Shown piece after piece: positions 24,349 through 61,457 of a DNA stretch of 64,000 bases (the stretch's first letter is position 1; each line of letters starts with the position of its first letter). Origin of the DNA: Amphibalanus amphitrite (Eukaryota > Arthropoda > Thecostraca > Balanomorpha > Balanidae); NCBI RefSeq assembly GCF_019059575.1, contig NW_024881561.1:1219001-1283000 (forward strand), written 5' to 3'. The translations under genes and the position numbers were made by a program. Below the pieces are notes generated by a model. That model saw only the letters and a list, made by a program, of their open reading frames with translations. It was not told where the DNA came from and ran no database searches.

Positions 24349-24462
24349 ATGGACGGCGTGTCAGCTCGAAACTCTGTGGTGCCCACCCGCACGGCGCGCA
24401 TCATGATGGAGGGCGTGGGCGCGCGCGTGATGCGCGGCCCCGACTGGAAATGGTGCAAACAG
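24349..24462 (+). CDS. mib1: mib1 exon 1 (start codon, MIB/HERC2-1 N-part)
   Basis: Encodes residues 1-38. The conserved part begins [19 protein letters not shown], matching the MIB1 N-terminus. The first about 16 residues are lineage-specific. The donor is CAG|GTGAGA, phase 0. Confidence 0.9.

Positions 24463-61457: not shown

What the first reader, a model, noticed from the sequence alone, without database searches (positions are those of the whole stretch)
24349..61457. Splice junctions of mib1 are systematically copied into tandem arrays
Eleven of 34 junctions are duplicated into the adjacent intron: donors of exons 3, 7, 9, 11 and 12; acceptors of exons 6, 8, 11, 13, 15 and 17. The repeat unit spans the boundary in most cases, so each copy carries 10-96 exon bases plus a usable GT or AG. 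Different introns have unrelated sequences and unit lengths (20, 33-37, 42, 49, 50, 61-69, about 80 and 103 bp). A shared transposon therefore cannot explain them; something about junctions themselves seems to seed the duplication, or selection keeps redundant sites. I know of no described phenomenon in which one gene has this at a third of its junctions. Possible explanations are boundary-biased replication slippage or R-loop breaks, tolerated because they leave the coding sequence intact.
Basis: seen in the sequence. Interest (0 to 1): 0.88.

Follow-up and report, generated by a model that had tools for sequence, protein, structure and literature searches.

The report
Splice-boundary repeat arrays in mib1
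In an animal mind bomb 1 gene, about a quarter of the exon-intron boundaries have been copied into short tandem repeats inside the neighbouring intron, a phenomenon already described in a few lancelet genes and here unusually dense.

Summary
The window holds an intact MIB1 gene: 18 exons, 1056 codons, 34 junctions. Nine of 34 junctions, not eleven, are truly duplicated into the adjacent intron: donors 3, 9, 11, 12 and acceptors 6, 11, 13, 15, 17. Donor 7's array holds only 3 exon bases; the array beside acceptor 8 stops 4 nt short and has no AG copy. Units of different junctions are unrelated.

Counted by array, the junction bias is real: 9 of 24 repeat families with units of at least 12 nt cross a junction, against 1.1 expected at random or 2.0 with GC matched. 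Counted by base position it is weak.

The claim that no such phenomenon is described is wrong: boundary-spanning tandem repeats were named "mirages" in amphioxus. The copies look like tolerated by-products: using 37 of 39 tested would bring a stop codon, and only 1 is in frame and open. Most likely they are minisatellites seeded in GC-rich exon flanks and kept because splicing ignores copies with little exon context. New here are the density and perhaps the host lineage, which I could not establish.

The parts
24349..61457 (+). MIB1 (mind bomb 1) gene, 18 exons, 1056 codons, intact reading frame
   Evidence: PDB matches named E3 ubiquitin-protein ligase MIB1
25981..26512 (+). array at donor of exon 3 (junction after 25997): unit 33-37 bp, about 15 copies, 17 exon bases
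28063..28226 (+). two copies of acceptor of exon 6 (junction after 28185), 103 bp apart, about 41 exon bases
28821..28861 (+). 2 x 20 bp at donor of exon 7, only 3 exon bases: not counted as a duplicated junction
29181..30563 (+). 42-bp array (about 32 copies) in intron 7 ending 4 nt before acceptor of exon 8; no AG-bearing copy found: not counted
31306..31526 (+). array at donor of exon 9 (junction after 31341): unit about 80 bp, 2 intronic copies, 36 exon bases
32647..32804 (+). array at acceptor of exon 11 (junction after 32780): unit about 68 bp, 24 exon bases
32952..33842 (+). family at donor of exon 11 (junction after 32978): one copy next to it, then a 61-64-bp array at 33526-33762 (also a 125-bp second-order unit); about 27 exon bases
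36386..36737 (+). array at donor of exon 12 (junction after 36402): unit about 35 bp, 5 intronic copies found, 17 exon bases
57817..57946 (+). array at acceptor of exon 13 (junction after 57937): unit 49 bp, 2 intronic copies, 9 exon bases
59079..59230 (+). array at acceptor of exon 15 (junction after 59199): unit 69 bp, 31 exon bases
60317..60848 (+). array at acceptor of exon 17 (junction after 60752): unit 50 bp, 7 intronic copies, plus a 224-bp second-order unit reaching 96 bases into the exon

Best explanation
These are mirage-type minisatellites. Short tandem duplications arise by slippage or unequal exchange in GC-rich DNA. In this gene the exons and the first and last 50 or so intron bases are GC-rich, so founding duplications often straddle a junction. 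Duplications wholly inside exons are removed by selection. Those straddling a junction are tolerated because only the site next to the full exon is normally used, so the surplus exon ends, donors and acceptors leave with the intron, and the array can then grow and homogenise. Shown: the arrays, their places, unrelated units, second-order units, the GC gradient, and the harmful reading of the copies. Inferred: the slippage itself, and the rule that copies with little exon context lose to the authentic site. A further junction-specific mutational bias is neither shown nor excluded.
For: 9 of 34 junctions duplicated, units unrelated. 0 of 25 families wholly exonic (simple repeats with units of 1-6 bases were masked). 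Intron GC 0.62-0.65 within 50 nt of junctions against 0.42-0.47 at 101-250 nt, array bases excluded. GC matching raises the expected number of crossings from 1.08 to 1.97. Exon part is 0.18-0.52 of the basic unit in 9 of 9, as expected if copies with long exon context are weeded out. 37 of 39 copies would bring a stop if used, yet the frame is intact. Reports on amphioxus say mirages do not disturb normal splicing (passages).
Against: A 4.6-fold excess remains after GC matching (9 against 1.97). Beyond 250 nt from junctions intron GC rises again to 0.50-0.57, and many of the 13 interior TRF arrays of intron 12 are not especially GC-rich (rank 0.43-1.0). No RNA data: splicing choice was not observed. 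Slippage was not distinguished from other ways of making tandem duplications.
Confidence: 0.6

Rival explanations
1. Junction-specific mutation: something at splice junctions (co-transcriptional RNA-DNA hybrids, polymerase pausing, chromatin at exon edges) seeds duplications there, beyond base composition.
For: 4.6-fold excess after GC matching. Outside intron 12, 7 of 9 families cross a junction and the other 2 lie within 4 nt of one; in intron 12 the only 2 crossing families of 16 sit one at each end.
Against: One gene, selected because of the feature; position-based tests weak. The constrained exon copy may keep junction arrays recognisable for longer (argument, not tested). No direct test of any such mechanism.
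Confidence: 0.22
2. Selection keeps redundant or regulatory splice sites.
For: 36 of 38 copies keep GT or AG; donor copies match a nine-base consensus about as well as the authentic donors; exon-like columns vary slightly less among interior copies (p 0.04).
Against: Use of 37 of 39 copies would bring a stop; 10 of 39 keep frame and 1 is open. The variation contrast is marginal after array edges and gaps are removed (against the inflated).
Confidence: 0.07
3. A transposon or introner-like element inserted at splice sites.
For: Retroelement frames with reverse-transcriptase domains are abundant in the window.
Against: Units of the junctions share no sequence except short matches between homologous ankyrin-coding exons and chance-length hits; copies contain the gene's own exon ends.
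Confidence: 0.02
4. Assembly artefact.
For: PMC3087553 reports one mirage aberrantly assembled in a draft genome (supplement legend passage); no reads were available here.
Against: Nine junctions with unrelated units, mostly diverged copies and an intact reading frame.
Confidence: 0.04

Closest known systems
Mirages: minisatellite-like tandem duplications of exon-intron boundaries in amphioxus (Adh3, globin genes BflGb6 and BflGb9, troponin C, PGBD5)
   Same: Tandem repeats spanning exon-intron boundaries, at 5' and 3' boundaries, many copies with AG/GT, unit lengths differing between places (Adh3 10-72 bp, BflGb6 150-160 bp, in passages; here 33-103 bp for the nine).
   Different: Nine boundaries in one gene, against one or two per gene in the passages I read. 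Host not established. Normal splicing and haplotype instability are reported there and untested here.
Internal tandem repeats at exon-intron boundaries of human duplicated genes (PMC2812944, passages read)
   Same: Minisatellite-size units (30 bp on average) at exon-intron boundaries that can yield new introns.
   Different: Those are variable repeats of recent primate paralogs, half of them coding; here the repeats lie on the intron side and the gene product looks conserved.
Intron gain by tandem genomic duplication (Rogers model; PMC4974935 seen as a search listing)
   Same: Tandem duplication of sequence holding splice signals; mirages have been proposed as its raw material.
   Different: No repeat family here links the donor and acceptor of one intron, so these arrays do not show the birth of these introns.

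Membership tests
Mirage (boundary minisatellite) | tandem repeat unit spans an exon-intron boundary | tested here: met
   9 of 34 junctions
Mirage (boundary minisatellite) | both 5' and 3' boundaries affected | tested here: met
   4 donors, 5 acceptors
Mirage (boundary minisatellite) | many copies carry GT or AG | tested here: met
   36 of 38 copies, (5 of them by eye)
Mirage (boundary minisatellite) | normal splicing undisturbed | not testable with these tools
   no RNA data; reading frame intact
Mirage (boundary minisatellite) | length instability between haplotypes or tissues | not testable with these tools
   one haplotype only
Mirage (boundary minisatellite) | cephalochordate host (where reported in the papers seen) | tested here: inconclusive
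   no genome held; 53.9% GC from counts, GC3 0.92 seem unlike amphioxus as I recall it; no paper passage with a lancelet GC value was found
Rogers-type intron gain by tandem duplication | one duplicated segment at the donor and acceptor of the same intron | tested here: not met
   each of the 9 crossing families touches one junction only
Introner or transposon family | shared sequence between insertions | tested here: not met

The most novel reading that the evidence does not exclude
In this animal, perhaps not a lancelet, splice junctions are genome-wide hotspots of tandem duplication beyond what GC content explains, and copies persist only while their exon part stays under about half the unit (some 40 nt), because longer exon context would let copies compete for splicing. 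Mirages would then be a general product of junction-biased mutation filtered by exon definition, and a steady source of new introns and exons.
Probability: 0.2. Interest if true: 0.72.

Novelty: new member of a known kind. Interest (0 to 1): 0.42.

Why it matters
It adds a gene with nine independent boundary arrays to a phenomenon known, in the papers I could see, from single boundaries of a few amphioxus genes. That makes testable what the spliceosome ignores (dozens of near-consensus sites beside real ones), whether junctions are mutational hotspots, and how introns might be gained.

Tried and rejected
Position-based permutation and position controls gave weak or no enrichment and are reported as such; I prefer the array as unit because one founding event covers hundreds of positions.

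The first gapped self-search (second part) was faulty: query and subject overlapped, giving a constant score of 74. It was replaced. The strong exon-versus-intron contrast among copies came from array-edge copies and gap columns; with interior copies only (4 of the 9 arrays, 25 copies) it shrank to p 0.04. The array list (9 of 24 against 0.76, or about 1.5 with GC matched) mixed two detection methods; one search repeats the test with one method and is preferred.

A shared transposon or introner was rejected. Rfam gave 0 matches at gathering score and ARAGORN 0 tRNAs.

Species identification failed: no genome is held for the window. A barnacle guess from GC content and protein flavour is recall only; passages of three barnacle papers and of four lancelet papers did not settle it.

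Full report
The gene. Exon edges set by GT-AG and frame give 18 exons from 24349 to 61457, 1056 codons and one terminal stop, 69.7% identical to the recalled human protein over 1057 aligned columns. The best PDB match is named E3 ubiquitin-protein ligase MIB1 (60 of 75 matches shown). Introns are 319-3272 nt, except intron 12 with 21,535 nt, which holds a reverse-transcriptase frame.

The arrays. TRF reports 73 rows in the window. A gapped search at each of the 34 junctions separates 9 (score 64-138) from 25 (score 0-19). The 9 are donors 3, 9, 11, 12 and acceptors 6, 11, 13, 15, 17. Copies were listed one by one: 38 intronic copies, 36 with GT or AG at the equivalent place (31 by script, 5 by eye). 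Units of different junctions are unrelated apart from short matches, some of them between ankyrin-coding exons.

Is it more than chance? The repeats are: 517-640 ungapped pairs against 0 in one Markov shuffle for each of three thresholds. For junction bias several nulls were used. With one detection method, 25 repeat families lie in the gene, 24 with units of 12 nt or more. Nine cross a junction by at least 5 bases on each side; 1.08 are expected for random founding units (0 of 500,000 simulations reached 9) and 1.97 with GC matched (p 4.8e-5). TRF arrays placed at random within their own intron: 7 of 23 against 1.59, p 2e-5; split, 5 of 8 against 1.56 outside intron 12 (p 0.005) and 2 of 15 against 0.03 in intron 12 (p 0.0004). 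Outside intron 12, 7 of 9 families cross a junction and the other 2 lie within 4 nt of one; intron 12 has 16, of which 2 cross, one at each end. Against this, position-based tests are weak: circular shift p 0.07, or 0.22 when 10 bases on each side are required; shift within the intron p 0.0055 or 0.19; 9 of 34 junctions against 30 of 137 random intron positions. The gene was selected for the feature, so all p values are optimistic.

What the copies would do. Of 39 copies tested (one of them at donor 7; the acceptor-11 copy without AG left out), 10 are a multiple of three from the authentic site, 37 bring a stop codon in the extension or the shifted exon, and 1 (donor 9) is in frame and open. 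Donor copies match a simple nine-base consensus about as well as the authentic donors. So the cell must mostly ignore them if the gene works. Variation among interior copies of four arrays is 10 of 80 exon-like and 25 of 100 intron-like columns (p 0.04), too little to claim selection on the copies. In 9 of 9 junction arrays the exon part is 0.18-0.52 of the basic unit (KS against uniform, p 0.018). It is established, as I recall it from Reed and Maniatis 1986 (not looked up), that competing splice sites are chosen by exon context and proximity; copies with short exon parts should then lose. This step is inference.

Mechanism. Intron GC outside arrays is 0.62-0.65 within 50 nt of junctions, 0.42-0.47 at 101-250 nt, and 0.50-0.57 beyond 250 nt, where intron 12 dominates; array GC is 0.51-0.90. 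Seeding in GC-rich DNA, removal of exonic duplications (0 of 25 families wholly exonic, with simple repeats masked), tolerance at junctions, and growth by slippage or unequal exchange (second-order units of 125 and 224 bp) explain much of the pattern. The 4.6-fold excess that remains after GC matching leaves room for a junction-specific process; a constrained exon copy that keeps old arrays recognisable could absorb part of it (argument, untested).

Known or new. [quoted passage not shown] it proposes them as a source of new introns. PMC3902484 (passage read) adds troponin C and PGBD5. PMC2812944 (abstract and passages read) reports minisatellites at exon-intron boundaries of human duplicated genes. 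The window's arrays meet the structural definition. What differs is the number per gene and perhaps the host: the window is 53.9% GC (counts) with GC3 0.92, unlike amphioxus as I recall it, but the species was not established.

Verdict. Observation mostly right (9 rather than 11), interpretation partly right, phenomenon already described; a dense new instance worth a genome-wide count.

Noticed in passing
10809-12505 and 15727-16395: A 21-bp minisatellite with the palindrome GAGGGCCCTC (48 exact occurrences in the window, all between 10809 and 16366) lies on both sides of a non-LTR retrotransposon frame (12457-14808, with a further piece at 15106-15507); the two arrays are 73-77% alike in the best local alignments, as if the element sat inside one array or carries it.
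   Followed up: partly
3580-6792, 12457-14808, 54078-55838 (+): Three long frames with Pfam RVT_1 domains; the first is preceded by a glutamine-rich frame (1734-3716) without a Pfam match.
   Followed up: partly
introns 1-17 of the gene: GC content rises steeply towards both intron ends (0.62-0.65 within 50 nt, 0.42-0.47 at 101-250 nt), array bases excluded.
   Followed up: partly
60753-60994: Exon 17 encodes long alanine runs in the linker before the last RING, with GCG/GCC/GCT/GCA codons.
   Followed up: no
58293-58614: The deduced protein lacks about ten residues found after the ankyrin repeats of the recalled human protein, at the exon 13-14 join; no short exon was sought beyond reading intron 13.
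   Followed up: no
9 junction arrays: The exon part is never more than about half of the basic unit (0.18-0.52 in 9 of 9).
   Followed up: partly
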